In this document: one piece after another, positions 12,169 through 61,814 of the stretch
Layout: every line of letters starts with the position of its first letter
Numbering within the stretch: the stretch's first letter is position 1
Assembly (NCBI RefSeq): GCF_016917355.1
Contig: NZ_CP070304.1
Coordinates: forward strand, 4,898,001-4,962,000
DNA length: 64,000 nt
From: Glaciimonas sp. PAMC28666
GTDB taxonomy: Bacteria; Pseudomonadota; Gammaproteobacteria; Burkholderiales; Burkholderiaceae_D
Direction of reading: 5' to 3'
Translations under genes and position numbers: made by a program
The notes under the pieces: model-generated
What the model saw: only the letters and a program-made list of their open reading frames with translations
Told to the model about the DNA's origin: nothing
Database searches by the model: none

Positions 12169-12225
12169 GTGAATGCAGAATGAAAGGAACGAGAAAAATT
12201 CTAGAGAAACGCCTGTCAGCGCAGC

Positions 12226-44785: not shown

Positions 44786-45460
44786 TTACTTTGCAATTTC
44801 AGGCGGCGCGATGTTAGTCAGCCCGACTTGGGAGTTAAGCTGGAAAAGTTCAGCATCGTTAGCACAAGCAAGCTTTTGCATCCCCATCCGTTTTTGATTG
44901 CTGATGGTTTTGCTACTGCGCCGAAAATGTTCGGCGATTGCCTGAACCGACATACCACCCAGAAACATGCGGATCACTTCCAGCTCTTTTTTGGAAAGCA
45001 ACGCGATTTTGTCGACTTCGGGGCGCGTGCTCTGTTCCGCAAGCATGGCAGTAAGGCTGCGACTTAAATATTTGTAACCGTCGGCCACCCGCTTAATCGC
45101 TAATGGTATTTCGTTCAGGTCGCTGCCTTTATTGAGTAATCCCTGCACACCTATCTGAACAATCTTGCTCAACAACGCTGGATTGGTCAGTACGGTCAAC
45201 ACGACTAATGTCACCTTCGGAAAGCGACTTTGTAGTCGGACCAACATTTCCATGCCATCGCCGAATGCGCCGCCCGGCATAGCGTAGTCGGTCAATACTA
45301 TATCGACCGGTGCGCTGTTAAGGATTGCAAACAGTTCAGTGGAATTGGCCGCGGTACCGACGATGTTTACCTCGGGAAGCGCCTGTAGCAGCGACTTTAT
45401 CCCAAGAAGAACGACCGGGTGATCGTCGGCCAGGACCAAATTGACTTGTCGACCATGCAT
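44786..45460 (-). CDS. LuxR/NarL-family response regulator
   Basis: A 224-residue two-component regulator. Receiver domain: acidic pair in LVLADDHPVVLLGIKSLL, phosphorylation Asp in VDIVLTDYAMPGG, switch Thr in LVVLTVLTNP and Lys in GLLNKGSDL. The C-terminal LuxR helix-turn-helix is LLSKKELEVIRMFLGGMSVQAIAEHFRRSSKTISNQKRM (shown in part). The DYAMPGG and FRRSSKTISNQK blocks resemble the RcsB/BvgA branch. It is 181 bases downstream of the pseudopilin operon on the same strand and may be its last gene or its regulator. No sensor kinase adjoins it. Confidence 0.9.
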   Translation of the reverse strand: MHGRQVNLVLADDHPVVLLGIKSLLQALPEVNIVGTAANSTELFAILNSAPVDIVLTDYAMPGGAFGDGMEMLVRLQSRFPKVTLVVLTVLTNPALLSKIVQIGVQGLLNKGSDLNEIPLAIKRVADGYKYLSRSLTAMLAEQSTRPEVDKIALLSKKELEVIRMFLGGMSVQAIAEHFRRSSKTISNQKRMGMQKLACANDAELFQLNSQVGLTNIAPPEIAK

Positions 45461-45641: not shown

Positions 45642-46181
45642 CTATTGCCCGCAAGCCCCAGGCGAAGCTGGCTTAACGGCACTCCCCTTCGCAATAAATT
45701 TCCAATCCGCGTATTGCGATTTTCCTTCGAACTCTTTGCGGCCGTCGGCAAATTTTATTTGCTTAAACGGTGTTGCCAGACTTTCACTTGAAACGCCAAC
45801 GATGCGACCACTTTCCTCTTTTATCAGGTGCCATCCACCATCGTTGACGGGTTGCGCATCCAGACTACCGTCCGGAAGGCTGACCCGGGCATGCATCGGA
45901 TCGGGAAATATTTTCCGCAAATGTCGCAATACGTGAAAATCGCGTCGATCTTCAAGTAATACCTCCAGATTAGGCGGATAACAGCCGCGCACCGGGCCAT
46001 TTTCGTAATAACCTCTAATCGCTCGCGCAACCTGATCGCCATTAAATAGCAGATCAGCTTCCTTTCCCCTAGCGAGGCGAACCGATACATCCTCGGAAAG
46101 CTTAAAGGTCATAATACTCATCACTGCGACAATAATGAGGACGGAAAGATAGGCAAATCCGTGCTGCTTACCATGTTGCAT
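45642..46181 (-). CDS. Atypical minor pseudopilin (lacks Glu5)
   Basis: A 179-residue type IV pilin-like protein. After a short basic leader (MQHGKQHG) comes FAYLSVLIIVAVMSIMTFKL, a pilin-like hydrophobic helix. Position 5 of the mature protein is Ser instead of the conserved Glu, as is typical of the tip pseudopilin GspK class. The periplasmic part has GYYENGPVRGCYPPNLEVLLEDRR and HLIKEESGRIVGVSSES, and two Cys that may pair. The ATG at 46181 has GAGAGG upstream and overlaps the preceding gene by 14 bases. Last gene of the secretion operon. Confidence 0.7.
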   Translation of the reverse strand: MQHGKQHGFAYLSVLIIVAVMSIMTFKLSEDVSVRLARGKEADLLFNGDQVARAIRGYYENGPVRGCYPPNLEVLLEDRRDFHVLRHLRKIFPDPMHARVSLPDGSLDAQPVNDGGWHLIKEESGRIVGVSSESLATPFKQIKFADGRKEFEGKSQYADWKFIAKGSAVKPASPGACGQ

Positions 46182-46548
46182 ATGCCTCTCCCGCAAGCGA
46201 ATTTCCGGGTGCGCCGCTGCGAACCTCGTTGATTTCAGCATCATCGTTCACCTCCGTCAACCAGGAGTCGCGCCGCCCTGTAACCGGGTCAAGCGGGACT
46301 TCTTTTAGATAACGCCGACTGACCAGATCTTCTAGGGACTGTGGTCCGACTGCCAGATCTTGCCGATAGTGATCGACCGCTTCGCGTAATCCGCGGATGT
46401 TATGTTGCAGCACAACTTCTTTGGCACGCTCGGTTTGTTTAAAGTATTTAGGTGCCACGAGTGTCATTAAAGTGGCAATAATCGCCATTACCACCAGCAG
46501 CTCTATTAACGTAAATCCTTTTTTACCATTGGTTATATGGAATGCCAT
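46168..46548 (-). CDS. Pseudopilin (GspG/GspH-like)
   Basis: A 126-residue protein with the prepilin motif KKGFTLIELLVVMAIIATLM (G before F, Glu5 present). Its C-terminal part has VDHYRQDLAVGPQSLEDLVSRRYLKEVPLDPVTGRRDSW, resembling the beta-sheet region of GspG-like proteins (DPxTGxxW). The ATG at 46548 is used. It overlaps the upstream pseudopilin gene by 26 bases and the downstream one by 14, so translation is coupled. Confidence 0.82.
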   Translation of the reverse strand: MAFHITNGKKGFTLIELLVVMAIIATLMTLVAPKYFKQTERAKEVVLQHNIRGLREAVDHYRQDLAVGPQSLEDLVSRRYLKEVPLDPVTGRRDSWLTEVNDDAEINEVRSGAPGNSLAGEAYATW

Positions 46549-47047
46549 TGAGACCCTCTTTCGTATTCTTTGACATAACGTCAAACACATCATCCCCTTC
46601 CTGCGGTGCATCGAAGGCACTGTCATAACTGCGCAATTGCCAGGTTTCGGCAGCAGCCGTATCCGCACAATTACAAATCGGATCGCGTGGCAATCTTCTT
46701 AGAAAAACGCGCTTGCCACCATTCAGATTCTTTTTATCCGGGACCCCGGACACCAATACCTCTAAATCCGGAGGATATCCGGACGCACCCAAAACCTTGG
46801 CGATCTCACCGTCGTCCGATGCTTGCTTGTAGGCGTCAATCGCACTGCGGATTTCACGCAATCCCTCCTTTAAAGCTTGCTCCTGACTGCGCCGCGCGAT
46901 TAATTCCGTCATCGGCAACAAAGCTGCAGCCAGAGACGCCAGAATGGCTAGCGAAACCATGAGTTCGATCAAAGTAAAGCCATTTGGTCGGACCGCTCTG
47001 CGGGTTGGGCTACCGGAGATACTCAGACGTTTTAGCCTGAATATCAT
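46523..47047 (-). CDS. Pseudopilin with CxC motif
   Basis: A 174-residue protein with a basic leader and prepilin motif NGFTLIELMVSLAILASLAA (Glu5 present). The periplasmic part contains YPPDLEVLVSGVPDKKNLNGGK and RLPRDPICNCADTAAAETWQLRSY, again the DP-x-x-W-type sheet of GspG relatives, with a Cys-x-Cys pair. The ATG overlaps the stop of the secretin gene by 4 bases (ATGA). Third of the three pseudopilin genes downstream of the secretin. Confidence 0.82.
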   Translation of the reverse strand: MIFRLKRLSISGSPTRRAVRPNGFTLIELMVSLAILASLAAALLPMTELIARRSQEQALKEGLREIRSAIDAYKQASDDGEIAKVLGASGYPPDLEVLVSGVPDKKNLNGGKRVFLRRLPRDPICNCADTAAAETWQLRSYDSAFDAPQEGDDVFDVMSKNTKEGLNGIPYNQW

Positions 47048-49296
47048 GACCTTCTCACGGTTTTATTTCCTAATTCGGTATTGGTAAGGGCTGACTTCAC
47101 CACCGGTTCCTGTGCCAAGGGCGTAGAGCCAGTTGCCAGGTACGTGGCGGAATCGCTATTTTCGGACAGAGAGCCAGGTGCAGAAAAATACGCTTTCGAC
47201 ACCGCGAGTACGGCGTTCTTTCCTATCTTTTGCTCTTCCTTTGTCAGGCCTGATGTTGGCGCATCCGGTGCCGCCCCCTTGGTCTTTTCAACGGAGAGCG
47301 GCGGAGTTCGGAGCGTCTGTCCAACATCAACCGAATTCTGGCGCACTGGCGGCGGGACCGCGGATTCAGGCGTTCCCTGGTCAGCCGGTTGCTCCAGTTG
47401 TGGCAATTCTTCGCTCTCGTCAGGCTCTTCTCTGTGGCTTGGTCGACTATCATGTCGCGCCGCCGAGGAGGTATTACCACCAGCGCTTCCTCCAGCAGTT
47501 AAGCGCGCACCTTCCGTGTTACGCAATACCAGACTATCCTGGCTCACACGCGATTCTGTACCGGAAATGAAGGTCGTCACATGGGCACCCGGCAACTCAA
47601 GTTTGCGTTCGATGCGCGGTGTGATCACCAGCACAATTTCGGATTTTGACTTGCTTCCGTCTCGATTGCCGAACAAACGATCAAGCAACGGCAACTGACT
47701 AAGGCCAGGCAAGCCTGATTTATTGTCCTCATCAATGCGATTAATCAGTCCGGCCAGAATCTGTGTTTCGTTATCTTTTGCCGTTAAGGTGGTTTTGGTT
47801 TTCCGTTGATTGACACGATAATACTTAGCGCCCTTGGGTGAGACTTCTGAGGCACCCAGGCTGGACACAGTGAGATCGATGTCAACACTAATTTCGCCAT
47901 CCAGACTAATCGACGGCAACACATCAAATTTCAGTCCCACGTCCAACATCTCAACTTTTTCTGAAGTCGCGCCAGAATCAGTCATCAAATTGGTAATGAC
48001 CGGAATTTTTTGACCAATCTCTATTTGTGCTTTTTTCCCGTTCTTGACACGAATTTTTGGATTCGCCAAAACTTGCATGTGCGTCGCTTTTTGCAGCATA
48101 TTTAGGGTAACGCCTTTTTTGCCGCCAAGGTCCACAAACAGATTGTTTTTGGTTAAGCCAGACAATAAGTTCAACGGAATCTGACTACTTCCGTCAACCC
48201 CGCCGTTAATCCCGACACCGACGGAACCGGGGTATTGAACTCCCAGATTGAGCAGATCGTTACTACTGATTTCAAGGACCTGAACATCTAACGTCACTTC
48301 AGCCTCCGGGCGATCAAGTGCCTGGACCAAACGACTCGCCAGTTCCAACGTTTCCGGAGCATCGCGGACAACAATGGCGTTAATGCGCTCGTCAACATAA
48401 ATGTCTCTGGTTTTTAGTGTCATTTTCAGGGCACTGCTAACCGATTTTGCATTGGCATGGCTCAAAAAGAAGGTCTTCACTGCCATGTCCCGATACTCTT
48501 TGTCCTTGCTCCCGCTCGCTGGATAAATCAACAATGTGTTGTGATTCAGGACTTTCTTGCGTAAGCGATTTGTCGCGAGCAACAAGTTGATAGCGTCTTC
48601 GGCTGTGGTTTTTTTGGCTGAAATACTCGCCACCGCGGACTTTGATACGTCGGCATCAAAAATGAAATTAACCCCGGCAAGTTTTGAAATCGTATCGAAA
48701 ATGCTCATCAGATTATGCGAGCGAAACGTCAACGACACCGGTTTTTGCAGCGATGCATCAAGCGTTGGCGACAGTGTTTTCGATTCGGCAACGCGGCGCA
48801 TCAGAGTATCGCGCAGCTTGATCGCATCGGTGCGGCCAGGATGTTCTTCCAGCACTTTCCAAATCAGCTGAAGCGCGTCTTCCGGTCGGCTTTCAGCAAT
48901 CACACGCGCTTCAGCCATCGATTCCCGTAAATGTTTACGGCTACCAATCTGCCCGATCGCCTGACGCGCCCGCATGTTGCCGCTGTCGTATTTCAGGACT
49001 GTTTCAAGTCGCTCAAGGGCGGTCTTTTCGTCATCTTGGGCGAGCGCTTCCTCCGCCTCCTGATAATAACGCCCCACCAATTTATCAACTTGCTTATACA
49101 TGGCGCTATCGAGTCGCATATCCTCTGGATTCTCTTTTCGCGCTTCCTGTAAAACGTTGATAGCCTCTTCCAAATGGCCTTGGTTGGACAGATCCTGGGT
49201 AGTTTGAACAGCCCGCGGAACAGCACATCCCGCAACTATCGAGGCAACCGCCACCATCAAAAGGCTCTTCGCCGCACGGCATTTTAAATTTAACAT
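47044..49296 (-). CDS. Secretin (GspD/MshL/PilQ-like lipoprotein)
   Basis: A 750-residue outer-membrane channel protein. It starts with a lipoprotein signal ending VAGC (Cys24), unusual for GspD but found in MshL-like secretins. Residues about 30-130 are TPR-like helices (LEEAINVLQEARKENPEDM, DEKTALERLETVLKYDSGNM). An STN/N0 domain follows (LTFRSHNLMSIFDTISKLAGVNFIFDADV), then one secretin N-domain (FFLSHANAKSVSSALKMTL, INAIVVRDAPETLE) and the channel (VTLDVQVLEISSNDL, VLANPKIRVKNGKKAQIEIGQ, LPGLSQLPLLDRLFGNR, EIVLVITPRI). A Ser/Pro/Glu-rich tail of about 150 residues follows and is not typical. The domain order is nearer MSHA/type IV pilus secretins than GspD. Confidence 0.88.
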   Translation of the reverse strand: MLNLKCRAAKSLLMVAVASIVAGCAVPRAVQTTQDLSNQGHLEEAINVLQEARKENPEDMRLDSAMYKQVDKLVGRYYQEAEEALAQDDEKTALERLETVLKYDSGNMRARQAIGQIGSRKHLRESMAEARVIAESRPEDALQLIWKVLEEHPGRTDAIKLRDTLMRRVAESKTLSPTLDASLQKPVSLTFRSHNLMSIFDTISKLAGVNFIFDADVSKSAVASISAKKTTAEDAINLLLATNRLRKKVLNHNTLLIYPASGSKDKEYRDMAVKTFFLSHANAKSVSSALKMTLKTRDIYVDERINAIVVRDAPETLELASRLVQALDRPEAEVTLDVQVLEISSNDLLNLGVQYPGSVGVGINGGVDGSSQIPLNLLSGLTKNNLFVDLGGKKGVTLNMLQKATHMQVLANPKIRVKNGKKAQIEIGQKIPVITNLMTDSGATSEKVEMLDVGLKFDVLPSISLDGEISVDIDLTVSSLGASEVSPKGAKYYRVNQRKTKTTLTAKDNETQILAGLINRIDEDNKSGLPGLSQLPLLDRLFGNRDGSKSKSEIVLVITPRIERKLELPGAHVTTFISGTESRVSQDSLVLRNTEGARLTAGGSAGGNTSSAARHDSRPSHREEPDESEELPQLEQPADQGTPESAVPPPVRQNSVDVGQTLRTPPLSVEKTKGAAPDAPTSGLTKEEQKIGKNAVLAVSKAYFSAPGSLSENSDSATYLATGSTPLAQEPVVKSALTNTELGNKTVRRS

Positions 49297-49298
49297 GA

Positions 49299-49853
49299 TT
49301 AATTTCCTGTTCCTGTGAAGACTTTGTCCAGGTTGACTGTTTGTTCAAGCTTCAACGGCAAATATGTAAAAGTGATACGTTCTTTTTCTATTTTTTCAAG
49401 GCGGTAATGTTGATCAATCACATCACCGATATTCGGAGTTACCGACTTATCACAACCTTGGCAAAGAATGATCGTCTCATTCTGTTTATCGCCTTTGGTT
49501 AGAATGATCTTCCGATGGACGCCGTCACTCCAAACGCCGCTAACGTGGAACGGAAGGGGCGGAGCGCGCAACGGTTCCGGAGCCGGTGTTAATGTGGGTC
49601 TGCTCACCGCACTCCGGGCGGTTACGCTCGGGAGAATGATCGGCGGTCCCTGATAGGGAAACAAATTGCGGGGCGCCAATGCCGTCATTTGAGACAGCAG
49701 CTGATTTTTTTCGACCACCGGTCCGCGCTTGGATTTGACTGATTTCGACGGAACCGCCATCGGTTCCTCCGGGATTGCATCGGTCCACATGGCATATCCG
49801 CAAGCGGCAACAGTCACTGGCAAAATGATTCTTAAATAAAGAGGAATCTTCAC
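49299..49853 (-). CDS. PilP/GspC-like assembly-platform protein
   Basis: A 184-residue inner-membrane protein that starts with GTG at 49853, with a GGGAG site 6 bases upstream and a 4-base overlap with the preceding stop. A membrane segment (about 7-23) is followed by a Pro-rich linker and a C-terminal domain (FHVSGVWSDGVHRKIILTKGD to ERITFTYLPLKLEQTV, shown in part) like the homology region of PilP/GspC, which contacts the secretin N0 domain. A CQGC pair (C131, C134) could be a substrate of the DsbC-like protein made by the same operon. Its place just before the secretin gene supports the role. Confidence 0.65.
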   Translation of the reverse strand: MKIPLYLRIILPVTVAACGYAMWTDAIPEEPMAVPSKSVKSKRGPVVEKNQLLSQMTALAPRNLFPYQGPPIILPSVTARSAVSRPTLTPAPEPLRAPPLPFHVSGVWSDGVHRKIILTKGDKQNETIILCQGCDKSVTPNIGDVIDQHYRLEKIEKERITFTYLPLKLEQTVNLDKVFTGTGN

Positions 49854-50452
49854 CTTGTTCTCCCTTTTTGCGCCTGCGTTACTGCGGATTTATCTTTGAC
49901 AGGCTGCTTGACTTCATCCCCGGCCACCGACAATCGCATTTCGATTGTTAGCATCTCTTCGGATGGATTTTTTCTGGTCAGAGAGAACGTTTCAACTGCG
50001 CCGCCTGGCGTTGCCGCCAATTCTTCCATCAATCCTCTGAACTGCGGATAACGCCCTACAGTCGGTAAGGTGATCAAAATTCGACTTTCTTTCTGCATGC
50101 CTTTTCCACGTTGCATCTGCTGGTATTTCACCTCCCGCGTATCCAGCTGGAATGTGTGCGCAAGGTCCAAAATAGTTTCTTTCCCATAAACGAAAGCAGA
50201 GGTCGGCACAGAAGCCGCTAACAAGCCACTTTTTAATTCCTTTGTCCTCGCCATCTGAAGCGAGGCGTTCTCTTTTAATGCGGCATCGAGTTGAATGATC
50301 GATTGATCCAAAAAAAATGTATGCGCAACGAGCGCGACGATCAGCACCGCAAGGCCAGTCAAACCGGGCAGTCCGCATACACCGGCGATGCGATACCATT
50401 CCCATTGCAAGCGTTTGGAAACTTTACTGAGGCGAATTGTCTGGTTAGTCAT
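49850..50452 (-). CDS. PilO-like assembly-platform protein
   Basis: A 200-residue bitopic membrane protein. A short basic N-terminus (LSKVSKRLQWEWYR) is followed by one membrane helix (about 22-46) and a coiled-coil (DQSIIQLDAALKENASLQMARTKELK in part). The periplasmic ferredoxin-like domain (LPTVGRYPQFRGLMEELAATPGGAVETFSL, shown in part) is characteristic of PilO/GspM. The ATG at 50452 overlaps the previous stop (ATGA). An alternative GTG at 50488 is less likely. Place in the M-N-O-P series. Confidence 0.75.
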   Translation of the reverse strand: MTNQTIRLSKVSKRLQWEWYRIAGVCGLPGLTGLAVLIVALVAHTFFLDQSIIQLDAALKENASLQMARTKELKSGLLAASVPTSAFVYGKETILDLAHTFQLDTREVKYQQMQRGKGMQKESRILITLPTVGRYPQFRGLMEELAATPGGAVETFSLTRKNPSEEMLTIEMRLSVAGDEVKQPVKDKSAVTQAQKGRTR

Positions 50453-50958
50453 TTCCACCCCAAAACCAGACTTGCGTCCATGCGCCACGCGTCGTCACCG
50501 GATTCATTTTTGGTATGCTGCTGTAAAAAAACATCGTTTCCAAATTGTTGTTTAAGACGCTCTACAAAAATAAATATTGCCTCTCTGGAGGTCGCATTGA
50601 TATGCATCTGCATACGACCTTTTGTGACATCCGTTTCCATTCGAAGCAGACTAATATCATCTGACCAGGCAGCCTCAACCCGTCCCAGCAGATTGATAGC
50701 CGGCTCAGTTGCTGAAACGCTTTCGGTAGATTTTTTTGCAATCTGAATTGCTTTTCTTTTCTTATCAACGCCTTGCTGCAAAGTCGCGAGTCGGTTTTTT
50801 TCCAAGTGCAATTGCGCATTTTTTAAGTTCAAGACACCGATGTCTTGCGATAAAATAATGACCGCCGCGAGGAAAATCGACATTGCGACAGAAATAAACA
50901 CAGGTCGAAAGCGATCTGTGGTGTCGATAGGAACGGCGTTCCGTTTAAAGATGGACAT
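50449..50958 (-). CDS. PilN-like assembly-platform protein
   Basis: A 169-residue bitopic membrane protein. One membrane helix (about residues 20-38) is followed by a coiled coil (LHLEKNRLATLQQGVDKKRKA) and a ferredoxin-like domain (LLGRVEAAWSDDISLLRMETD, VERLKQQFGNDVFLQQH), the PilN/GspL-C-terminal layout. The ATG at 50958 has AGGAG 8 bases upstream and overlaps the preceding gene by 14 bases. The cytosolic part is only about 18 residues and contacts the PilM-like protein encoded just upstream in related systems. Confidence 0.75.
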   Translation of the reverse strand: MSIFKRNAVPIDTTDRFRPVFISVAMSIFLAAVIILSQDIGVLNLKNAQLHLEKNRLATLQQGVDKKRKAIQIAKKSTESVSATEPAINLLGRVEAAWSDDISLLRMETDVTKGRMQMHINATSREAIFIFVERLKQQFGNDVFLQQHTKNESGDDAWRMDASLVLGWK

Positions 50959-51721
50959 GCGTTTTCTCCTGCACTTTTGGGGCTTCGAGGCCGGATAACT
51001 GCGTATCGGAACCCGTGATCGTGGCCGGTGAAAACAGGTCTGCACCGGATAAATCGCTTAAATAAATATTAGTTGGAAAAATATTTGCCATAATCGAGGC
51101 AGACTTCAGACTATCCTCAGCACTCTGGCCATTCCCGGGCAACGCGAAGGCATAGCGCCAACGACCATCCTGCCTGAAGCCGAATTCATAGCCGTCAGCC
51201 TGCTGAACAACAAATACTGCGTCCGCATGTAACACGTCCGGATGGCGATCAATGGTATCGGATAGTAATGTCTGTACACGCTGGACACGTAGTTTTTGGT
51301 TGTTGCATGCCAGGAGAATTTCGTCAACGATGTCGCGACGAATGGCGCTGGCAATCGCAGGGCGGCCGAACTTTTCCTGGGAAATCTCACAATACCAATC
51401 AGAACGTACCAAACCGTAATGTTGCTGCAGCATCGACTCCGCATACGCAAGGCGATCTGCGGGTGCGATGATTTCATCTTGCCATGGCAAGATCATGTGG
51501 TTGACGTAGGGATAGCCTATCGCTAATTCGATCCCATCGAGTATCGACAACTGGCTGCGGGGCAGCGCGGCGATCAAAGTATCAAAATGGGCGCTGCGCT
51601 CCACGACGCTCTGGGCCGGCGACAAGACGAGTTTACGGGTTAGCGCCTTCGGCTGGCGAGATGACGTTATTGTGACCTCCGTGCCAATGACAGCCCTATA
51701 TTTATTCCATCGCAATGACAC
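50945..51721 (-). CDS. PilM/GspL-cytosolic-domain-like protein
   Basis: A 258-residue soluble protein that begins with GTG at 51721, preceded by a perfect GGAGG at 6-7 bases; no ATG exists near the start. It looks like a reduced actin-like PilM or GspL cytosolic domain (RAVIGTEVTITSSRQPKALTRKLVL; ADAVFVVQQADGYEFGFRQDGRWRYAFALPG) but lacks the clear ATP-binding motifs of full PilM, which is about 350 residues. In related platforms this protein docks the GspE/PilB ATPase, whose gene overlaps it by 20 bases. The assignment is based on position and weak fold similarity. Confidence 0.6.
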   Translation of the reverse strand: MSLRWNKYRAVIGTEVTITSSRQPKALTRKLVLSPAQSVVERSAHFDTLIAALPRSQLSILDGIELAIGYPYVNHMILPWQDEIIAPADRLAYAESMLQQHYGLVRSDWYCEISQEKFGRPAIASAIRRDIVDEILLACNNQKLRVQRVQTLLSDTIDRHPDVLHADAVFVVQQADGYEFGFRQDGRWRYAFALPGNGQSAEDSLKSASIMANIFPTNIYLSDLSGADLFSPATITGSDTQLSGLEAPKVQEKTHVHL

Positions 51722-53459
51722 GTTGCACCTCCGTTAATGTCGTTTTTCCTTCTAGCACGGCAGCCATTGCCACCTCACTCATCGAAACGAAGCCCTCGGC
51801 TTTGGCGATCGCCTTCAGTTCCCGCATCGGAACTTTTTGCATGACAGCGTCTTTGAAGCTTTCGCTGCAACGTAAAATTTCGGCCAATGCAATACGACCG
51901 TGGAAACCGGTGAAGCGACATGCTTCGCACCCGGCACCCTGCATAAGATTCACGGCAGCGGCGCCAGCCGAAAAATGCTGTGGATGCGATTGCGCTACCG
52001 CCATGCGCGCAGCGTCCGAGACAACGCAGGAGCAGGCGGGACAATTGCGTCGTACCAGGCGCTGTGCTACTACCCCGTTCAGGGCCTCTAACAAACTCGC
52101 AGGCTCGACGCCCATGTAAAGGAAACGCTCAAGCACGCTAAACACGCCGTTTGCATGCACCGAAGACAGCACCAAATGGCCGGTCAGCGCTGCCTGCACT
52201 GCGATACCTGCGGTTTCCGTGTCGCGTATTTCACCGACCAGAATGATGTCCGGATCGTGACGCAAGATTGAGCGCAGTCCTTTGGCAAAGGTCAGCCCTT
52301 TCTTGTCGTTGACAGGTATCTGCAACACCCCTTGCAATTGATATTCAACCGGATCTTCAATAGTGATGAGCTTCTCTTCCCCACTGTTAAGTTCCGATAG
52401 CGTCGCGTACAAGGTGGTCGATTTCCCGCTTCCTGTTGGGCCGGTGACCAGCACCATGCCGTGCGGAATCTTCACCAGACTGCGAATCCGATCAAGGGTA
52501 CGGTTATCAAAACCCAACGTCTCCAGTTTGATCGCCTGGTTTTGGCTCGATTTGTCAAGCACGCGTAATACCGCGTCTTCACCGTGGATACTCGGCATAA
52601 CCGATACGCGGAAATCGATATTCCGGGACTGTATACATGCTTTGAAACGCCCGTCTTGCGGAATCCGACGTTCACCGATATCCATTCCGCCTAACACCTT
52701 AATGCGCGAAATGGTCTGTTCAGCGAAATCACAACCCTGCACCTGCGTGATGGCTTGCAACACGCCGTCGATACGATATTTCACTACCAGCCCATCCTCT
52801 ATACTTTCAAGATGGATGTCGCTGGCGCGTGATTGAAGCGCATCGAAAAGCGTCGAATTAAGCAGCTTCACGACCGGACTTTGATCTTGTGAAATGGTGC
52901 TTAACGAAATTTCTGCTACGTCGTCAGTCTGTCGCTCCGATTGCTCTTGCTGAAACTGATCGATCGCTCGTTCCTGCGCCTCAACTAATTTTAGACGCTG
53001 CTTGACTGCATCAGGAACCGTAATTGCTAACACGGCGTTATGTTGCTTGTCCAAAAGCTGGATCCAATGTTGCGCCCAATTTCGTGCTGCGATTGAACCG
53101 GGACGTCCCATTACCAGATATACAATTCCATCGACGCGGATTGGCAAAATTTGTTTATCCAATACGACCGCTAACGGCAAGATGTCGAAATCGCAGTCCG
53201 CATCCAGGACGATATCGCCCGCAATGGATCGCACCCCGATAAGCGCTGCGAGCTTGTCCAGTCGCTCTGGATGGGTATTGAGCATGTGCTCAATTGCTGC
53301 ATCACCATGCTCTGCCATGGCGCTTGTAAGCCAGGCTGGTACTTCGCACTCCACGCAGAGCGTATCGGGGATACCGTCTGCCGCGTTTTTGATCGCGGCA
53401 TCCCTCACGTCGTCGCGGCGATGCATCTTGTCGCTGTCATTGGTTAAGTCATTACTCAT
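51702..53459 (-). CDS. Secretion/pilus assembly ATPase (GspE/PilB/MshE family)
   Basis: A 585-residue hexameric ATPase that powers pseudopilus growth. N-terminal GspE-N domains (residues about 30-150) precede the core. Walker A GPTGSGKSTTLYATL lies near residue 340, then an Asp box (LITIEDPVEYQLQG), Walker B (DIILVGEIRDTETA) and the His box (LTGHLVLSSVHANG). A tetra-Cys zinc site (CPAC, then CEAC about 45 residues later) is present, as in GspE and PilB. The ATG overlaps the end of the gspF-like gene (ATGA). Confidence 0.93.
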   Translation of the reverse strand: MSNDLTNDSDKMHRRDDVRDAAIKNAADGIPDTLCVECEVPAWLTSAMAEHGDAAIEHMLNTHPERLDKLAALIGVRSIAGDIVLDADCDFDILPLAVVLDKQILPIRVDGIVYLVMGRPGSIAARNWAQHWIQLLDKQHNAVLAITVPDAVKQRLKLVEAQERAIDQFQQEQSERQTDDVAEISLSTISQDQSPVVKLLNSTLFDALQSRASDIHLESIEDGLVVKYRIDGVLQAITQVQGCDFAEQTISRIKVLGGMDIGERRIPQDGRFKACIQSRNIDFRVSVMPSIHGEDAVLRVLDKSSQNQAIKLETLGFDNRTLDRIRSLVKIPHGMVLVTGPTGSGKSTTLYATLSELNSGEEKLITIEDPVEYQLQGVLQIPVNDKKGLTFAKGLRSILRHDPDIILVGEIRDTETAGIAVQAALTGHLVLSSVHANGVFSVLERFLYMGVEPASLLEALNGVVAQRLVRRNCPACSCVVSDAARMAVAQSHPQHFSAGAAAVNLMQGAGCEACRFTGFHGRIALAEILRCSESFKDAVMQKVPMRELKAIAKAEGFVSMSEVAMAAVLEGKTTLTEVQRVIAME

Positions 53460-54628
53460 GCAACGCTCCCCGCCAACTCAAAAATCGGCATATACAATAA
53501 AAAGACGATGGTTCCGATAAGACCGCCAACAATCAGCATCAACACCGGTTCGAATATTTTGCTAAACACTTCTATGGCACGGGCCAGAGCTTCGTCATGA
53601 AATTGGGCGATCCGTTCGCACATACCGGCCAGGTCGCCACTTTTTTCACCGACGCGTAATAAGCGCGCTGCAACCGGCGTCGTCAAATTTGCGTCAACCA
53701 ACGCCCCGGCCACGCCACGCCCTTCCTGCACGTGCCGGAGAACCTGTTGCAGATCAGACTGGCGGTCTGCGGGAAGAAGCTTGCCGGTGAGCTTTAATGC
53801 ATCGACGACCTGCATTCCCCCCAGCAGCAATAAGCCGAAGGTTCGGTAGAAGCGCGCCAAAACGAATAACACACGTTGTTCGTTCAGACGCTTGATGCTC
53901 CATACCATTTTCCATAGTGCAGCCTTCGCAGTTGCCGTACGCAACACCAGCACGGCGGTGACGACGCTGACGATTAAACCCAGAAGAAGTTCGCCACCAC
54001 GTTCGGTGACCATCCCAGCCCACCACACCATTAACAGGGCAGTACCATTCAGGTCTTTCATCCCGCTAAAAACGGTGGCAAACCGCGGAATGACGAACAC
54101 GACTAAAAATCCTAAAATCAGTGCGCCGACCGCCACCACGATGAGTGGGTACATCAAGGCACTCCAGACTTTCTTTTTCAAACTGGCAATCTGTACTTCA
54201 TAATGATGGAACCGACGTAATGCCTGAGGTAATTGACCGCTATGCTCTGAAGAGGCAACGCTGGCGATCAAGAGCGTCGGGAAAATTTCGCCCTGTTGCT
54301 CCATCGCTTGTGACAGGGGCTGCCCGCGATACAAAAAGGTCAGCAGGCCATCCAATACTTCCTTGTGTTCCTCATTTGCCGATTTTTCGGCTAAAGCTTC
54401 GATCGCCTCAACCAATGCCAAACCAGCGTCGAGAAGCGCAATCAGCTCCTGGATAAACAGACCGAGCAGAAATTTACTTCGACGTTTTGCGCGCTGGCGA
54501 ATCTCTCTCACACGTAATACCTGCCCCTGTTTGGCGCACTGACTGGCAGCATCATCCGCATTCTTCGCCTGTATTAATTGATGCTCTGCTTCTCCACCAC
54601 GCATAAGGAGTACGTCGAACTGTTTCAT
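53456..54628 (-). CDS. Inner-membrane platform protein (GspF/PilC family)
   Basis: A 390-residue polytopic membrane protein with two T2SF domains. The first is around FIQELIALLDAGLALVEAIEALAEKS with LTFLYRGQPLSQAMEQQGEIFPTLL; the second around FYRTFGLLLLGGMQVVDALKLTG and VGEKSGDLAGMCERIAQFHDEAL. Membrane segments lie near 165-190, 205-230 and 355-380. It anchors the ATPase to the pseudopilus base. The N-terminal start (MKQFDVLLMRGGEAEHQLIQAKN) resembles GspF. Overlaps of 4 bases exist on both sides. Confidence 0.92.
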   Translation of the reverse strand: MKQFDVLLMRGGEAEHQLIQAKNADDAASQCAKQGQVLRVREIRQRAKRRSKFLLGLFIQELIALLDAGLALVEAIEALAEKSANEEHKEVLDGLLTFLYRGQPLSQAMEQQGEIFPTLLIASVASSEHSGQLPQALRRFHHYEVQIASLKKKVWSALMYPLIVVAVGALILGFLVVFVIPRFATVFSGMKDLNGTALLMVWWAGMVTERGGELLLGLIVSVVTAVLVLRTATAKAALWKMVWSIKRLNEQRVLFVLARFYRTFGLLLLGGMQVVDALKLTGKLLPADRQSDLQQVLRHVQEGRGVAGALVDANLTTPVAARLLRVGEKSGDLAGMCERIAQFHDEALARAIEVFSKIFEPVLMLIVGGLIGTIVFLLYMPIFELAGSVA

Positions 54629-55161
54629 GGTGCCGTCGTACCAAGCTGTAGCTGTAGCTGTAGCGGCGGCGTCTGCCTGCCAGAGGAATTGGCCGACGGA
54701 ACCTGAGATCGACTTTTTTCCTTGAGTTTCAGAACCCGATATTGACCGGCGACTTTCTTGATATACCGGCCGCGTGCAGCCTTTCGGTTGCGACCCGTAC
54801 CAGCGTTATAAGCCCCTACCGCGTTCCAGTTATAACCAACGCGCTGAACAAACTCTGCCAAAATCCATGCGCCAACCATGACAGAAGTACAGGGTTCGGC
54901 AATCAAGCGTTTTTCGGTAATTCCTAACGGCGCGAGCCGTGGAAAATGTAGCTTATTGATTTGCATCAAACCGACGTCATAGGAACCATCATTGTTATAG
55001 TTACGGGCAGCAACGTTCATGCCCGATTCGACATGCGCTATTGCCTGGAGCAGCATGGGATCAATGCTATAGCGGGCGCCGGCTTCATCCCAGCAGGCCG
55101 CCTGAGCAGGGGCTGTTGCAGCGATACATAAAGTGAGCGCAACTGAGGATAATTTCATCAT
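54625..55161 (-). CDS. Lytic transglycosylase, SLT domain (IagB-like)
   Basis: A 178-residue exported muramidase. A signal peptide (ALTLCIAATAPAQA-ACWDEAG) precedes the SLT domain: catalytic Glu in AIAHVESGMN, then YDVGLMQINKLHFPRL and WNAVGAYNAGTGRN. Two Cys (CWDE and EPCTS) may pair, as in IagB/PilT-type enzymes that open peptidoglycan for secretion machinery. The C-terminal Gln/Leu repeat (LQLQLQLG) comes from a short repeat in the DNA. The gene starts right at the gspG stop and ends overlapping gspF, a position that supports a role in building this apparatus. Confidence 0.9.
   Translation of the reverse strand: MMKLSSVALTLCIAATAPAQAACWDEAGARYSIDPMLLQAIAHVESGMNVAARNYNNDGSYDVGLMQINKLHFPRLAPLGITEKRLIAEPCTSVMVGAWILAEFVQRVGYNWNAVGAYNAGTGRNRKAARGRYIKKVAGQYRVLKLKEKSRSQVPSANSSGRQTPPLQLQLQLGTTAP
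54642..54664 (-). repeat. Hexanucleotide repeat at the 3' end of the transglycosylase gene
   Basis: About 3.5 units of agctgt on the plus strand, encoding the Leu-Gln repeat at the protein end on the minus strand. Confidence 0.75.
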
Positions 55162-55599
55162 TCAAAATCCCCGCGTAATGTCTTTGTTCTTCCCTGATCC
55201 GCCGGGTTGTCCATCGGCACCCAAAGATAAAATTTCAACCTCATAGGCAGCGTCGGCGTCACGCGCGGGGTTGTGCCAGACGTAGGTGTTGTCCCACGGG
55301 TCTTTCGGCAAATCGTTGTTCAGGTAAGGACCTTTCCAGTGATTTTCGCCGGCAGGCTGGATTATTAATGCCTCCAACCCCTGCTCTTCGGTCGGATAAG
55401 TGCCAGTATCGAGACGATATTGACCGAGCACGTCGGCCAGCGTTTTCATTTGTGCCGCCGCGGCACTTTCTTTTGCCTGTTCAATTTTTCCGAACAATTT
55501 TGGCCCGACATAGCCAGCCAACAGTGCGGTAATCAACAGAACCACTAATAATTCAAGCAGCGTAAAGCCGCGCTCAGAATGGTGTTTAAGGTTCATCAT
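55162..55599 (-). CDS. gspG: Major pseudopilin GspG
   Basis: A 145-147-residue type II secretion major pseudopilin. The prepilin motif is RGFTLLELLVVLLITALLAG (Glu5 present). YRLDTGTYPTEEQGLEALI, WKGPYLNNDLPKDPWDNTYVW and LGADGQPGGSGKNKDI are GspG signatures; the last includes the calcium-site loop. Three candidate ATGs (55605, 55599, 55596) lie close together; 55599 is best spaced from AAGGA. This is the most canonical T2SS part of the cluster. Confidence 0.93.
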   Translation of the reverse strand: MMNLKHHSERGFTLLELLVVLLITALLAGYVGPKLFGKIEQAKESAAAAQMKTLADVLGQYRLDTGTYPTEEQGLEALIIQPAGENHWKGPYLNNDLPKDPWDNTYVWHNPARDADAAYEVEILSLGADGQPGGSGKNKDITRGF

Positions 55600-55693
55600 T
55601 TTCATTTCCTTGAATCGAATTGAGTCTGCCAGGTCATTACCTGCCGGGAGACTTCTTAAATGGTTACAACGTAGGTCTGGGACAATCCGGCCT

Positions 55694-56389
55694 TTAAAAT
55701 TGCACCGGGGTCGCCTTCTTCAATCTTTTTTCAATTTCATCCGCAGGGATAAACCCGCTCACACGGGAGCCATCAGAAAAAATTAAAACAGGCGTTCCAC
55801 GGATATCAAAACTTCGTCCGATATCGAGGAGTTCTTGCGTAGCCGCTGAACAAGCTGCATTCTTTGCTGGCGCTTTTCCTTGCAGCATCCACGCTTCCCA
55901 CGCTGCGGAAGGATTCTTTGTGCACAGAATATCGCTGCCTTTATCTCTTGAGTTTGCCGATAAAAACGGAAAGATAAACGTATGCACAGTCACGTTATGG
56001 AGTGTCGCCAACGCTGCTTCAATACGATGGCAATAACTGCAATTCGGATCGGAGAACACCGCAACATGGCGCTCCCCTGTCCCTTGTACTCGCTTGATCG
56101 ATTTTTCCAATGGAAGACGATTCCAGAGGTTATCGCCGACAGATGATTTGCTAATCTGAAGAGCCGCCTCAGGTGAAAAGGTGGTACGAACATTTCCAAA
56201 TTGACCGTACCCTGCTGGCGCCTGCATACCGATTGTGCGGTTGGCATCGGTGGTTTTAGACAGTCCCAGTCCGAATAAATGTTGCGATTGATCGCGCTGC
56301 AATCCATCTGCGACGTTGGCACCAAGTGCAAATGGCGCTATGAAAAAAATAGAAAGTGCAGAGGCGACAACAAATTGATTTACGCGCAT
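55694..56389 (-). CDS. DsbC-like thiol:disulfide interchange protein
   Basis: A 231-residue periplasmic thioredoxin-fold protein. Signal peptide (VVASALSIFFIAPFALG-ANV) is followed by a dimerisation-like N-terminal part, then the active site FSDPNCSYCHRIE (CSYC) and a cis-Pro loop in DIRGTPVLIFSDGSRVSGFIP. A second pair of Cys (ILCTKNPS and AACSAATQ) matches the structural disulfide of DsbC/DsbG. The ATG at 56389 has AGGAG about 10 bases upstream; the longer frame to 56563 is not conserved. First gene of the secretion operon; it probably isomerises disulfides in the operon's Cys-bearing pseudopilins and platform proteins, or in secreted substrates. Confidence 0.85.
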   Translation of the reverse strand: MRVNQFVVASALSIFFIAPFALGANVADGLQRDQSQHLFGLGLSKTTDANRTIGMQAPAGYGQFGNVRTTFSPEAALQISKSSVGDNLWNRLPLEKSIKRVQGTGERHVAVFSDPNCSYCHRIEAALATLHNVTVHTFIFPFLSANSRDKGSDILCTKNPSAAWEAWMLQGKAPAKNAACSAATQELLDIGRSFDIRGTPVLIFSDGSRVSGFIPADEIEKRLKKATPVQF

Positions 56390-57210
56390 TTTATAAGGCT
56401 CCTGTTGATAGAGGGGAGGATGAAAATGAATGCCTTTATCACCGCACTCGTTTTTCTTTTTCCAAGTTGATGACGAAGTTTCACAGAGAAGCAGTGTTGG
56501 GGAAATGGGATTTATCCCAAAAAAGAAGCGCATACAGAAGATTCTTCGTATGTTCACTGTCACGCAGATAAATAGTTTTCAAAATAAATAACGTCGGCTT
56601 TCGTCGACCAAGCCGGGCATTAATCGCAGAAAAAAATTACCAATAACAATTCGAAAGTTAAAAGAAGAGTCGCCAATAAACCAAAAACAAATTAATGAAT
56701 TTTTTTCGATCAGGTTGTCGTTATGATTATTTAATTCGCGCTCAAAAAATATTTACGAGGATAGTAAATGGCGCAAGAAAAAACAATGCGAATACTCTCG
56801 AATGCATCTAAGAATATTCTATAAAATCGGAATTTAGCGCGCTAAGGTCGTGCGCCGTCATAGCGTAAAAACAGTTAATACGAGATAAAGCGCATGACGA
56901 TGGCGCTTCCTTCATCGCCCACTGCCAGGCCGGCGCATGCGCCACCGGTGCGATTTATCTGCCTCAGATCCAGAATTATCTTCCTTATATCTAGTACTTA
57001 TCTCGTATTTTCATTTGGCAATCTTGGCCACACTGTGCGCTGCTAAATCGATCCGACCATACGAAAACCCGGTGCCTTGACGGCGCGGCTTTTTCCTCGG
57101 TGCCATCTAACCCAAAGTCTATCGTGAGCCATGTTTGTATCACCCGCATAGCGCCAACACCAGCGCCGCCGAACATAGCCGCGAGCCACTTTTCAACCAA
57201 CAACTTCCCT
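56390..57210. other. AT-rich divergent intergenic region
   Basis: About 820 bases without a convincing gene between the secretion operon (minus) and the copper receptor gene (plus). 56570-56830 is markedly AT-rich. It should contain both promoters and probably regulator sites for the neighbouring two-component systems. No hairpin terminator or known box stood out. Confidence 0.45.
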
Positions 57211-59277
57211 ATGACGAATCGCCTTAAACTCACTCCAGTCGCTTTCATTCTGGGCGCCCTCTTTCTGACGAATGTTCAGGCCAATTCTCTGGCGGACTCT
57301 CTGAATACCGTTCGCACCGCGGAACAAAGTACGCCGCTTCCGGAAGTCGTCGTGACTGCGCCGCAGATGTCGGCACCGCTGACTGTTGTCACCGATCCAA
57401 AAGCACCCCGGCAGCCGGTTCCAGCACACGATGGTGCCGATTACCTTAAAACAATTCCAGGCTTCTCGGTGGTGCGTAAAGGCGGCACCGATGGCGATCC
57501 TGTATTGCGCGGCATGGCTGGTTCACGTTTGAATATTGCAACGGATGGGCAACAGATCTTAGGTGGTTGTGGTGGCCGCATGGACCCGCCGACGGCGTAT
57601 ATATTTCCTGCAGAATACGACAAAATCACGGTTATCAAAGGCCCTCAAACTGTCTTGTATGGTCCTGGAAACTCTGCTGGAACGGTACTTTTTGAGCGCG
57701 ATACGCGTCGTGCGCAACCGGGTATCAAATCGAATACCAGTATCATGACTGGTAGCTTTGGACGCCATGATGAAGTCGCAAGCGTACGCTATAGTCTCTC
57801 CGATTTTTATGCTGAAGCGGGTGCCACCCGCTCGCATTCCGATGATTACCGCGATGGCAATGGAAATTCCGTACACTCATCGTATACGCGCTGGAGTAGT
57901 CGGGCAGCGTTTGGATGGACGCCCGACGACAATACCTTGCTCGAGCTATCTGTTGCCAAAAGTGACGGACAGGCTGCCTATGCAGATCGCGGTATGGACG
58001 GTGCGCGCTTCGCACGATCCAATATCGGACTCAAGTTCCAGAAACGTAACTTGTCCCCGATGGTAAAGAAAGTCGAAGCCCAAATTTATCGTAACTATAT
58101 TGATCATGTGATGGACAATTATAGTGTACGTTCGCCACTGCCAGGTAGCATGTTAAAGGCAATGAATCCTGATCGCACGACAGAGGGCGGTCGCGCGGCC
58201 ATTACATTAAATCTCGGCGACACGACGCAACTGGTAACTGGTTTCGATATGCAGCGAAATGCGCATACGACTCGCATGGGGATGGGGTCGAATCCCAATA
58301 CTGTCTCTTACAAAAATGGCCCAAGGGTGCCTGACGCACGGTTCGAAGATATCGGCTTGTTTGGAGAACTGACTCAGCATATGGGAAAGAATGAAAACAG
58401 TCGCATCATCACCGGCCTGCGTACAGATTTTTGGCGCGCCGTCGACGAACGGAAATCCAGTGCGAATACCGGCAACGTCACCCACAGGAATGACATGTTA
58501 CGCAGTGGATTTACCCGCTATGAGCAGGATCTTACGACGATACCAATGACGCTATATGCGGGTGTTGGCATCGTAGAACGATTTCCGGATTATTGGGAGT
58601 TGATTTCAAAGCAAAGCGCAAACAGCACCAGCGCCTTTGGTACCAAGCCAGAAAAAACCATGCAGCTTGATATTGGTGGTTTGTACCAGTCGGGCCCATG
58701 GAATGTGACAGCTTCAGCCTTTTACAGTCAAGTGAAAGATTTTATTTTGATTCAGTCGAACGTCAATAAAGGCTCCGCAACCGGTATCTCGATTGCACGT
58801 AATATCGCAGCAACCACATGGGGCGGCGAAATTGGTGCCGCTTACGCGTTGAATAAAGACTGGAAACTGGACGGATCACTCAACACCGTTCGTGGCAATA
58901 ACCGAACCGATAACACACCGCTGGCACAGATGCCGCCATTGGAAGGTAAATTTGGTCTTACTTTCGACAATCAAATTTGGTCGCTGGCCACCATGATGCG
59001 CACTGTCGCTGCACAAAAGCGTTTCGATCTTAACAAAGGTAATATCGCAGGGCAGGACCTGGGTGCCAGTGCGGGCTTTACCGTATTTTCTGTCAATGTC
59101 GGCTGGAAGCCTCGTAAGGATCTTCTGATTACAGCCGGTATCGATAATATTGCCAACAAGGTATATGCAGAACATTTGAGTCGTCGGGGTGCGGTTCTGC
59201 CGGGATATGACCAGACTGCACGAATTAACGAGCCAGGCCGCACCATTTGGCTAAAAGCGCAATTTGAACTGAAATAG
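57211..59277 (+). CDS. TonB-dependent copper receptor (OprC/NosA-like)
   Basis: A 688-residue outer-membrane receptor. A signal peptide (VAFILGALFLTNVQA-NSL) is followed by a TonB-box-like stretch (LPEVVVTAP) and the plug (HDGADYLKTIPGFSVVRKGGTDGDPVLRG, DGQQILGGCGGRMDPPTAYIFPAEYD, VIKGPQTVLYG). The GGCGGRMDPPTAY motif is specific to the copper receptor group (TIGR01778). The 22-stranded barrel ends with GRTIWLKAQFELK, a standard terminal strand ending in aromatic/charged residues. The ATG at 57211 is used because upstream in-frame codons do not give a signal peptide. It lies 560 bases upstream of the LPMO gene, with a terminator between. Confidence 0.9.
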   Translation: MTNRLKLTPVAFILGALFLTNVQANSLADSLNTVRTAEQSTPLPEVVVTAPQMSAPLTVVTDPKAPRQPVPAHDGADYLKTIPGFSVVRKGGTDGDPVLRGMAGSRLNIATDGQQILGGCGGRMDPPTAYIFPAEYDKITVIKGPQTVLYGPGNSAGTVLFERDTRRAQPGIKSNTSIMTGSFGRHDEVASVRYSLSDFYAEAGATRSHSDDYRDGNGNSVHSSYTRWSSRAAFGWTPDDNTLLELSVAKSDGQAAYADRGMDGARFARSNIGLKFQKRNLSPMVKKVEAQIYRNYIDHVMDNYSVRSPLPGSMLKAMNPDRTTEGGRAAITLNLGDTTQLVTGFDMQRNAHTTRMGMGSNPNTVSYKNGPRVPDARFEDIGLFGELTQHMGKNENSRIITGLRTDFWRAVDERKSSANTGNVTHRNDMLRSGFTRYEQDLTTIPMTLYAGVGIVERFPDYWELISKQSANSTSAFGTKPEKTMQLDIGGLYQSGPWNVTASAFYSQVKDFILIQSNVNKGSATGISIARNIAATTWGGEIGAAYALNKDWKLDGSLNTVRGNNRTDNTPLAQMPPLEGKFGLTFDNQIWSLATMMRTVAAQKRFDLNKGNIAGQDLGASAGFTVFSVNVGWKPRKDLLITAGIDNIANKVYAEHLSRRGAVLPGYDQTARINEPGRTIWLKAQFELK

Positions 59278-59765: not shown

Positions 59766-59795
59766 GAATTGAATTGAATTGAATTGAATTGAATT
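59766..59795 (+). repeat. Pentanucleotide (GAATT) repeat upstream of the LPMO gene
   Basis: Six perfect gaatt units (plus a partial one before) end 41 bases upstream of the LPMO start codon, in its promoter or 5' leader. A change in copy number shifts spacing by 5 bases per unit. Confidence 0.97.
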
Positions 59796-59836
59796 ATTTA
59801 ATGCATTTTCATCCACTAACAAGAAGGTTTTATTCA

Positions 59837-61513: not shown

Positions 61514-61814
61514 TGTTTGTATCTCCATTTTTTTGGTACAGGCAATGTGATGCAATACATCGCAACATTACCAGGCAAACCCAATGCAGAGGTCGTGTTT
61601 ATACCGAAGCACGTCTCAACCACCCAAATCAGCGTTGACGTAGCCGGTCCGTTAATTGGGAAAAATCCCATTCTCATAGCTCGATGTTAAGAATATTCTT
61701 TGCTCTAACAAACCGGGACTAATCTTTTGCGCTTAGTAGCTAGTCTCCTTCAGATAACCGTACGGCGTCTCGATCAGCGTTATGTCGAGAATCCGCAGGA
61801 ACGGAGTTTTCCAT

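What the first reader, a model, noticed from the sequence alone, without database searches (positions are those of the whole stretch)
45642..56389. Hybrid secretion operon: type II secretion parts on a type IV pilus-like platform
Twelve minus-strand genes with 4-26-base overlaps encode, in transcription order, a DsbC-like isomerase, GspG, an SLT transglycosylase, GspF, GspE, PilM-, PilN-, PilO- and PilP-like proteins, a lipoprotein secretin with TPRs and a long Ser/Pro tail, and three pseudopilins. The last pseudopilin lacks Glu5. Canonical gspC/H/I/J/K/L/M/N are not present as such, and no prepilin peptidase is encoded. Known systems (T2SS, T4aP, MSHA, Tad) each match only part of this. The DsbC gene with several Cys-bearing products (CQGC, CxC, others) suggests disulfide handling is built in.
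Basis: partly seen in the sequence, partly recalled or inferred. Interest (0 to 1): 0.72.

Follow-up and report, generated by a model that had tools for sequence, protein, structure and literature searches.

The report
Variant of Xcm-type unorthodox secretion system
A cold-loving bacterium carries a compact gene set for an under-studied protein-export machine that is widespread in related bacteria, here beside a copper-dependent chitin-attacking enzyme that it may export.

Summary
It is not a unique hybrid. GspG-F-E-M-N-O-P-secretin-pp1-pp2-pp3 recurs in exact order in 31 of 79 loci from other named genomes, and E-M-N-O-P-secretin-pp1-2-3 in 46 of 79. GspE falls in a 100/100 clade apart from the T2SS, PilB and MshE references. 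That clade holds a P. putida-group cluster beside mnxG-like and csgG-like genes, with gspG/gspF as a separate pair, which fits Xcm (de Vrind 2003, recalled). Ralstonia papers report 'unorthodox T2SS'. The missing Glu5 is a family trait (0 of 76 rows).

New is the subtype: an IagB-like transglycosylase after gspG in Glaciimonas and Rouxiella, DsbC in Glaciimonas only, a cysteine pair in pp3, and an island with a TonB copper-receptor homologue, a GbpA-like LPMO and response regulators. Most likely function: pseudopilus-driven export of folded periplasmic proteins, the LPMO being the leading, unproven cargo. Copper cargo is not family-wide (0 of 20 loci in the window's own taxonomic family).

The parts
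55694..56389 (-). DsbC-family thiol:disulfide protein (Thioredoxin_2, CSYC); ORF could start at 56563
   Evidence: Pfam PF13098 4e-20; NCBIfam DsbC below cut-off; profile hits only in the 4 Glaciimonas loci
55162..55605 (-). GspG major pseudopilin
   Evidence: TIGR01710 145.6 bits, cut-off 88.85
54625..55161 (-). IagB-like lytic transglycosylase
   Evidence: PF01464 3e-26; IagB model 2.4e-50, below cut-off; same type between gspG and gspF in 4 Glaciimonas and 2 Rouxiella loci; another SLT type sits there in L078, and this type lies after pp3 in L044
53456..54628 (-). GspF-like inner-membrane platform protein
   Evidence: PF00482 9.8e-45
51702..53459 (-). GspE-like assembly ATPase (Walker A GPTGSGKS, CxxC...CxxC)
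   Evidence: PF00437 7.2e-124; below GspE and PilB equivalog cut-offs; trees
50945..51721 (-). PilM-like actin-fold protein
50449..50958 (-). PilN-like (ORF could start at 51045)
   Evidence: 18 of 29 relatives match PF05137; start
49850..50452 (-). PilO-like (ORF could start at 50488)
   Evidence: 11 of 28 relatives match PF04350, 11 match T2SSM_b; PilO 3jc8 E 3.8e-10
49299..49853 (-). PilP/GspC-like: N-terminal helix plus HR-like domain, CQGC
47044..49296 (-). Lipoprotein secretin (VAGC lipobox, TPR, STN, Ser/Pro tail)
   Evidence: PF00263 2.7e-37; tree
46523..47047 (-). pseudopilin pp1 (E5, CNC)
   Evidence: PF07963
46168..46548 (-). pseudopilin pp2 (E5; ORF could start at 46668)
   Evidence: PF07963
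45642..46181 (-). tip-type pseudopilin pp3 without Glu5 (ORF could start at 46244)
   Evidence: GspK N-terminus E 0.0023; alignment A5; 0 of 76 rows with E5
44786..45460 (-). RcsB-like response regulator RR1
   Evidence: PF00072, PF00196; beside pp3 in all 4 Glaciimonas loci
57100..59277 (+). TonB-dependent copper-receptor homologue, divergent
   Evidence: TIGR01778 717 bits, cut-off 472.45; 44-45% homologue beside the Rouxiella clusters
59789..61399 (+). GbpA-like LPMO (AA10); signal peptide then HGYVESP (by eye), C-terminal tail resembling a chitin-binding module (by eye)
   Evidence: PF03067 4.7e-39; GbpA model 429.9 bits, cut-off 481; sequence
61782..62495 (+). response regulator RR2
   Evidence: PF00072, PF00196; homologue downstream of pp3 in Rouxiella silvae
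62572..63120 (+). cytochrome b561
   Evidence: PF01292 2.2e-20; homologue in both Rouxiella loci

Best explanation
This is a subtype of the Xcm-type 'unorthodox' type II secretion machines. GspE (ATPase), acting through GspF and a PilM-N-O-P-like platform, builds a short periplasmic pseudopilus of GspG tipped by pp1/pp2/pp3, which pushes folded, Sec-exported protein through a self-anchored lipoprotein secretin. The transglycosylase opens peptidoglycan for assembly and DsbC repairs disulfides in machine parts or cargo. Prepilins are processed by a PilD encoded elsewhere. The leading cargo is the adjacent GbpA-like copper LPMO. Shown: gene content, order, family membership, co-occurrence of the island parts. 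Inferred: that it secretes, the cargo (about 0.4), the roles of LT and DsbC, the use of PilD.
For: The same 11-gene order recurs in 31 of 79 loci; the GspE clade is 100/100 and the window-Rouxiella-L002/L005 group recurs in the secretin tree. Family HMMs for PilM/N/O/P and the three minor pseudopilins score nothing over 30 bits in 20 canonical T2SS loci. Pseudomonas members sit beside an mnxG-like operon: beta-propeller, SCO1, PPIase and, in P. inefficax, a 1949-aa protein with multicopper-oxidase motifs, before CsgG, with gspG and gspF as an adjacent pair about 70 kb away. Likely exoprotein genes next to family loci differ by lineage: multicopper oxidase, LTD-nuclease in 6 of 20 family loci vs 0 of 20 T2SS loci (p 0.02, uncorrected for 11 probes chosen after the fact), proteases (L003 M4; L041 subtilase), RHS (R. 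solanacearum rhsB). TonB receptor, LPMO and system are all present in 4 of 5 Glaciimonas genomes and all absent from the fifth. Precedent: the Txc T2SS exports CbpE, a GbpA homologue.
Against: No secretion data. The same genome has two T2SS with GspE over the T2SS cut-off that could export the LPMO, and a second LPMO elsewhere. Rouxiella badensis (G195) has no LPMO match and R. silvae only distant ones (32%), so the LPMO is not essential to the subtype. Co-absence in one congener may be loss of one block. Xcm gene layout is recalled, not read. PilP evidence is weak.
Confidence: 0.75

Rival explanations
1. It is a pilus or adhesin (MSH/T4P-like), not a secretion system; GspG builds a surface fibre.
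For: PilM/N/O-like parts are pilus-type; MSH loci also lack a peptidase (Denise 2019 passages).
Against: Major subunit passes the GspG equivalog; GspE lies apart from MshE; no PilT-type retraction ATPase in the operon; likely exoenzyme genes sit next to family loci.
Confidence: 0.12
2. The island is a copper-acquisition system: the machine exports a copper-binding protein and the TonB receptor takes the copper back.
For: The TonB copper-receptor homologue is the partner shared by Glaciimonas and Rouxiella; LPMOs bind copper; an azurin/LPMO copper link is reported (PMC7902821 passages).
Against: No copper carrier recognised in the Rouxiella stretch held; the TonB family name does not prove copper; the SCO1, multicopper-oxidase and LPMO probes hit none of 20 family loci in the same taxonomic family.
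Confidence: 0.1
3. A decaying or cryptic relic that is not expressed.
For: In congener G077, IS30-like (my label) and IS21 elements interrupt the operon between genes.
Against: All 13 window frames are open and all 13 families are found in all four congener loci.
Confidence: 0.06

Closest known systems
Xcm system of Pseudomonas putida GB-1 (de Vrind et al. 2003; title seen in reference lists, gene layout recalled)
   Same: P. putida-group loci L071/L072/L079 have GspE-M-N-O-P-secretin-pp1-2-3 in the same order; L071 and L072 lie in the same GspE and secretin clades
   Different: In P. inefficax gspG/gspF form a pair about 70 kb away, CsgG follows and an mnxG-like operon precedes; no LT or DsbC hit in the stretch held
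'Unorthodox T2SS' of Ralstonia solanacearum (PMC6428702 passages)
   Same: Reduced T2SS (7 core genes) beside rhsB; RHS genes also lie near family loci
   Different: Sequences not compared here (see referred step)
Pul/OxpG 'atypical T2SS' of Geobacter (PMC3543383 passage)
   Same: Atypical T2SS needed for a secreted multicopper oxidase; a Desulfuromonadales ATPase sits near the base of the clade
   Different: Identity with this family not tested
Txc T2SS of P. aeruginosa PA7 (PMC8623646 and PMC12051241 passages)
   Same: T2SS with the GbpA-type cargo CbpE and two-component control
   Different: Described as a third Xcp homologue, so orthodox; not compared by sequence here
MSHA pilus
   Same: PilM/N/O-like platform, peptidase elsewhere
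   Different: MshE and MshL reference rows lie outside the clade (reference secretin over the MshL cut-off)

Membership tests
Xcm-type / unorthodox T2SS | GspE, PilM/N/O/P-like, secretin and three pseudopilins in one order | tested here: met
   46 of 79 loci exact for the nine genes; the window, a further locus, has the same order
Xcm-type / unorthodox T2SS | ATPase and secretin inside the same clade as the P. putida-group cluster | tested here: met
   100/100 GspE clade; secretin clade SH-aLRT 92
Xcm-type / unorthodox T2SS | Tip pseudopilin (pp3) without Glu5 | tested here: met
   0 of 76 rows with E5; GspG 64/64, pp1 80/80, pp2 70/70 with E5; only rows matching my motif, a few loci held twice
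Xcm-type / unorthodox T2SS | Secretes proteins | not testable with these tools
   needs a secretome comparison
Xcm-type / unorthodox T2SS | The reference locus really is xcm as described for strain GB-1 | tested here: inconclusive
   CsgG neighbour, mnxG-like operon and a separate gspG/gspF pair fit the recalled layout; the 2003 paper could not be read
Orthodox T2SS | gspC/H/I/J/K/L/M as such | tested here: not met
   no such model over its cut-off; only weak N-terminal prepilin hits (GspH/I/J/K)
Orthodox T2SS | GspE and GspD over curated cut-off | tested here: not met
   475.5 vs 630.25 and 160.9 vs 351.35; the genome's own T2SS GspE proteins score 702.8 and 701.9
MSHA/MSH pilus | Secretin over MshL cut-off; ATPase groups with MshE | tested here: not met
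   107.8 vs 250.2; MshE rows outside the clade
Type IVa pilus | ATPase over PilB cut-off | tested here: not met
   445.7 vs 675.65

The most novel reading that the evidence does not exclude
A separate branch of the type IV filament superfamily that carries its own PilMNOP-like platform, moves as a cassette (conjugative plasmid, Rouxiella island) and is re-tooled for whatever exoprotein is encoded next to it. In Glaciimonas/Rouxiella it gained a conjugation-type transglycosylase, and in Glaciimonas DsbC, and became part of a copper-enzyme (LPMO) and copper-receptor island.
Probability: 0.35. Interest if true: 0.62.

Novelty: new variant of a known kind. Interest (0 to 1): 0.42.

Why it matters
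The family is common in beta-proteobacteria and Pseudomonas, yet I found little experimental work on it in the papers searched. One annotated example carries only generic 'type II secretion' and 'hypothetical' names. Cargo genes next to the machine, differing by lineage, give a direct way to find what it secretes, and the Glaciimonas/Rouxiella subtype offers a compact, portable test case.

Tried and rejected
Copper export as the family-wide purpose: suggested by multicopper-oxidase probes (12 loci) and SCO1 (18 loci, 17 distinct since L075 repeats L126) among the 127 loci then held plus the window, but 0 of 20 family loci and 0 of 20 T2SS controls in the window's own taxonomic family had either; rejected as general. 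The multicopper oxidases are not one family: the probes do not find each other, and the 713-aa fragment in L071 has no Cu motif, though the full 1949-aa protein has. The 2847-aa protein beside the second Glaciimonas cluster (L128) looked like a giant multicopper oxidase but lacks the His motifs; the two genes next to it carry them. A DsbC-driven surplus of cysteines: not shown. Pfam scan of PilM relatives: 3 chance families, one member each, of 29. PDB sequence search for PilM: none. Promoter/terminator scan: fewer sites than shuffles, and no promoter-like site just upstream of DsbC. Literature for xcmX/xcmT1: nothing relevant among the ten papers listed of 5,697.

Full report
Observation. The window is C1:4898001-4962000 of a 5.23-Mb single-contig genome. 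The genus is probably Glaciimonas: congener G054 has a contig of 216,964 bases, the length of the Glaciimonas immobilis contig behind L075.

How common it is. Iterated profiles show the order G-F-E-M-N-O-P-S-1-2-3 exactly in 31 of 79 (L075 dropped as a duplicate of L126), E-M-N-O-P-S-1-2-3 in 46, and all nine genes in any order in 57. Some of the rest are cut by contig ends. Five loci have the operon circularly permuted (L030, L037, L043, L062, L074; L043 also moves pp3). By my count of the table, 81 of 195 genomes of the window's taxonomic family, the window's own included, have a secretin match at E 1e-70 or better. Of 20 such loci that I chose for genus spread, 17 have all nine core genes over 30 bits. 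In 20 canonical T2SS loci the same profiles find only GspG, GspE, GspF and secretin relatives. A conjugative Burkholderia ambifaria plasmid carries LT-G-F-E-four small genes-S-1-2-3.

Trees. A careful GspE tree (50 rows; 37 of the 79 named loci plus window, congeners, plasmid and reference rows) gives the family clade 100/100, apart from the two T2SS of this genome, E. coli GspE, PilB, and MshE. For that tree I left out two PilT rows, HofB, L077, L119 and L120 as long branches; the quick tree with them also gives a 100 clade. Caution: one search warns that long branches meet at the root fork, and the root is a choice. Window plus three congeners (100/100), plus Rouxiella (100/100), plus Janthinobacterium/Andreprevotia (98/94), plus Parachitinimonas (97/95). 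The secretin tree agrees on the first three nested groups; its family clade has support 92. The MSHA reference secretin passes the MshL cut-off (281.3 vs 250.2).

Link to known systems. In Pseudomonas/Halopseudomonas loci and an Azoarcus MAG, the cluster follows genes resembling the mnxG operon: beta-propeller, SCO1, PPIase (the PPIase was not seen in L028 and L047) and a large protein that in P. inefficax is 1949 aa with multicopper-oxidase motifs. This fits the operon drawn for P. putida GB-1 (PMC8218464 figure legend). In L071 the cluster is followed by CsgG, and gspG (48%) and gspF (42%) form an adjacent pair about 70 kb away on the same contig. That is the Xcm layout as I recall it: xcmT1/xcmS apart, xcmX before csg-like genes, needed for the Mn-oxidising factor. 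I saw only the 2003 title in reference lists and a mention of Xcm (PMC4509608 passages). Ralstonia 'unorthodox T2SS' with an adjacent rhsB is reported (PMC6428702 passages). I did not compare those sequences.

The subtype. The IagB-like LT sits between gspG and gspF in the four Glaciimonas and two Rouxiella loci. A different SLT sits there in L078, L044 has an LT of this type after pp3, and a second SLT type lies near 15 of the loci held, so a transglycosylase near the machine is a recurrent theme. Plasmid relatives of the LT and of DsbC are mostly on conjugative plasmids (4207 of the 5000 records kept, limit reached; 392 of 466). The collection's own share of conjugative plasmids was not measured, so recruitment from conjugation modules is only an inference. 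DsbC is in the four Glaciimonas loci only. Beside the operon stand the TonB copper-receptor homologue, LPMO, RR2 and cytochrome b561. TonB, LPMO and RR2 recur in all four Glaciimonas loci; b561 in three (not found in the G096 stretch). Both Rouxiella loci have TonB, b561 and an A24 peptidase divergent to gspG, and R. silvae has an RR2 homologue after pp3 (the R. badensis contig ends soon after pp3). The Rouxiella genes lie after a yihI-like gene and, in R. silvae, before a hemN-like gene (identified by eye); these are neighbours in E. coli K-12, so the block looks inserted. In G014, the congener without the system, TonB and LPMO are also missing and collinearity with the window ends at leuC.

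Cargo. Neighbours differ by lineage: multicopper oxidases (L056 PF07731; split pair beside the second Glaciimonas cluster), an M4 metalloprotease (L003), a subtilase (L041), LTD-nuclease, RHS. In matched loci of one taxonomic family: nuclease 6 of 20 vs 0 of 20 (p 0.02), RHS 4 vs 0 (p 0.11), SCO1/multicopper oxidase 0 vs 0, the TonB probe 0 vs 1; 11 probes, chosen after seeing the other loci, p not corrected. For the window the LPMO is the best candidate: signal peptide then His1 (by eye), an extracellular enzyme type. CbpD is T2SS-secreted (PMC7902821 passages) and the GbpA homologue CbpE goes through Txc (PMC8623646 passages). Against: two T2SS in the genome, a second LPMO elsewhere, and no close LPMO in Rouxiella.

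Verdict. A well-read operon that belongs to a recurrent, under-studied family; a new variant with two added parts and an interesting island. Interest 0.42.

Noticed in passing
L126 with L128:3827-15614 (G. immobilis) and L125/L129 (G077): A second, distinct family cluster in Glaciimonas lies beside SCO1, an SLT, a split multicopper oxidase (547 + 525 aa, Cu motifs read in L128) and a 2847-aa protein with a cupredoxin-like start but no Cu motifs.
   Followed up: partly
L122:2379-4762 and 11604-12620: In G077 an IS21 pair sits between pp1 and pp2 and an IS30-like transposase gene between gspE and gspF.
   Followed up: partly
L001:3096-16115, L004:3101-17112: Rouxiella carries the system as a block with TonB receptor, cytochrome b561 and its own A24 prepilin peptidase, at a site that in E. 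coli is yihI-hemN.
   Followed up: partly
L030, L037, L043, L062, L074: The operon is circularly permuted (OPS123GFEMN or S123GFEMNOP types).
   Followed up: no
L026, L027, L029, L038 and six of 20 family loci: An LTD/endonuclease gene near the cluster recurs in Duganella-type genomes: a likely cargo.
   Followed up: partly
L156 (NZ_CP086300.1:175-19641): Conjugative Burkholderia ambifaria plasmid with the whole cluster, a lytic transglycosylase, cytochrome c peroxidase and RHS.
   Followed up: partly
window genome G000: Seven large GspE/PilB-class ATPases among 12 PF00437 matches: two T2SS, T4aP, MSH-like, TfpB, one unassigned, and this one.
   Followed up: yes
window 63189-63998, L130:6738-14511: Two large hybrid sensor kinases (HisKA, HATPase, receiver, Hpt, in the congener) with a further response regulator lie next to the island.
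   Followed up: partly
G000:C1:3652454-3653848: A second LPMO, 70% identical, far from the island.
   Followed up: no
G197:C123:108063-109678 (P. inefficax): Family gspF and gspG as an adjacent pair about 70 kb from the rest of the cluster.
   Followed up: yes
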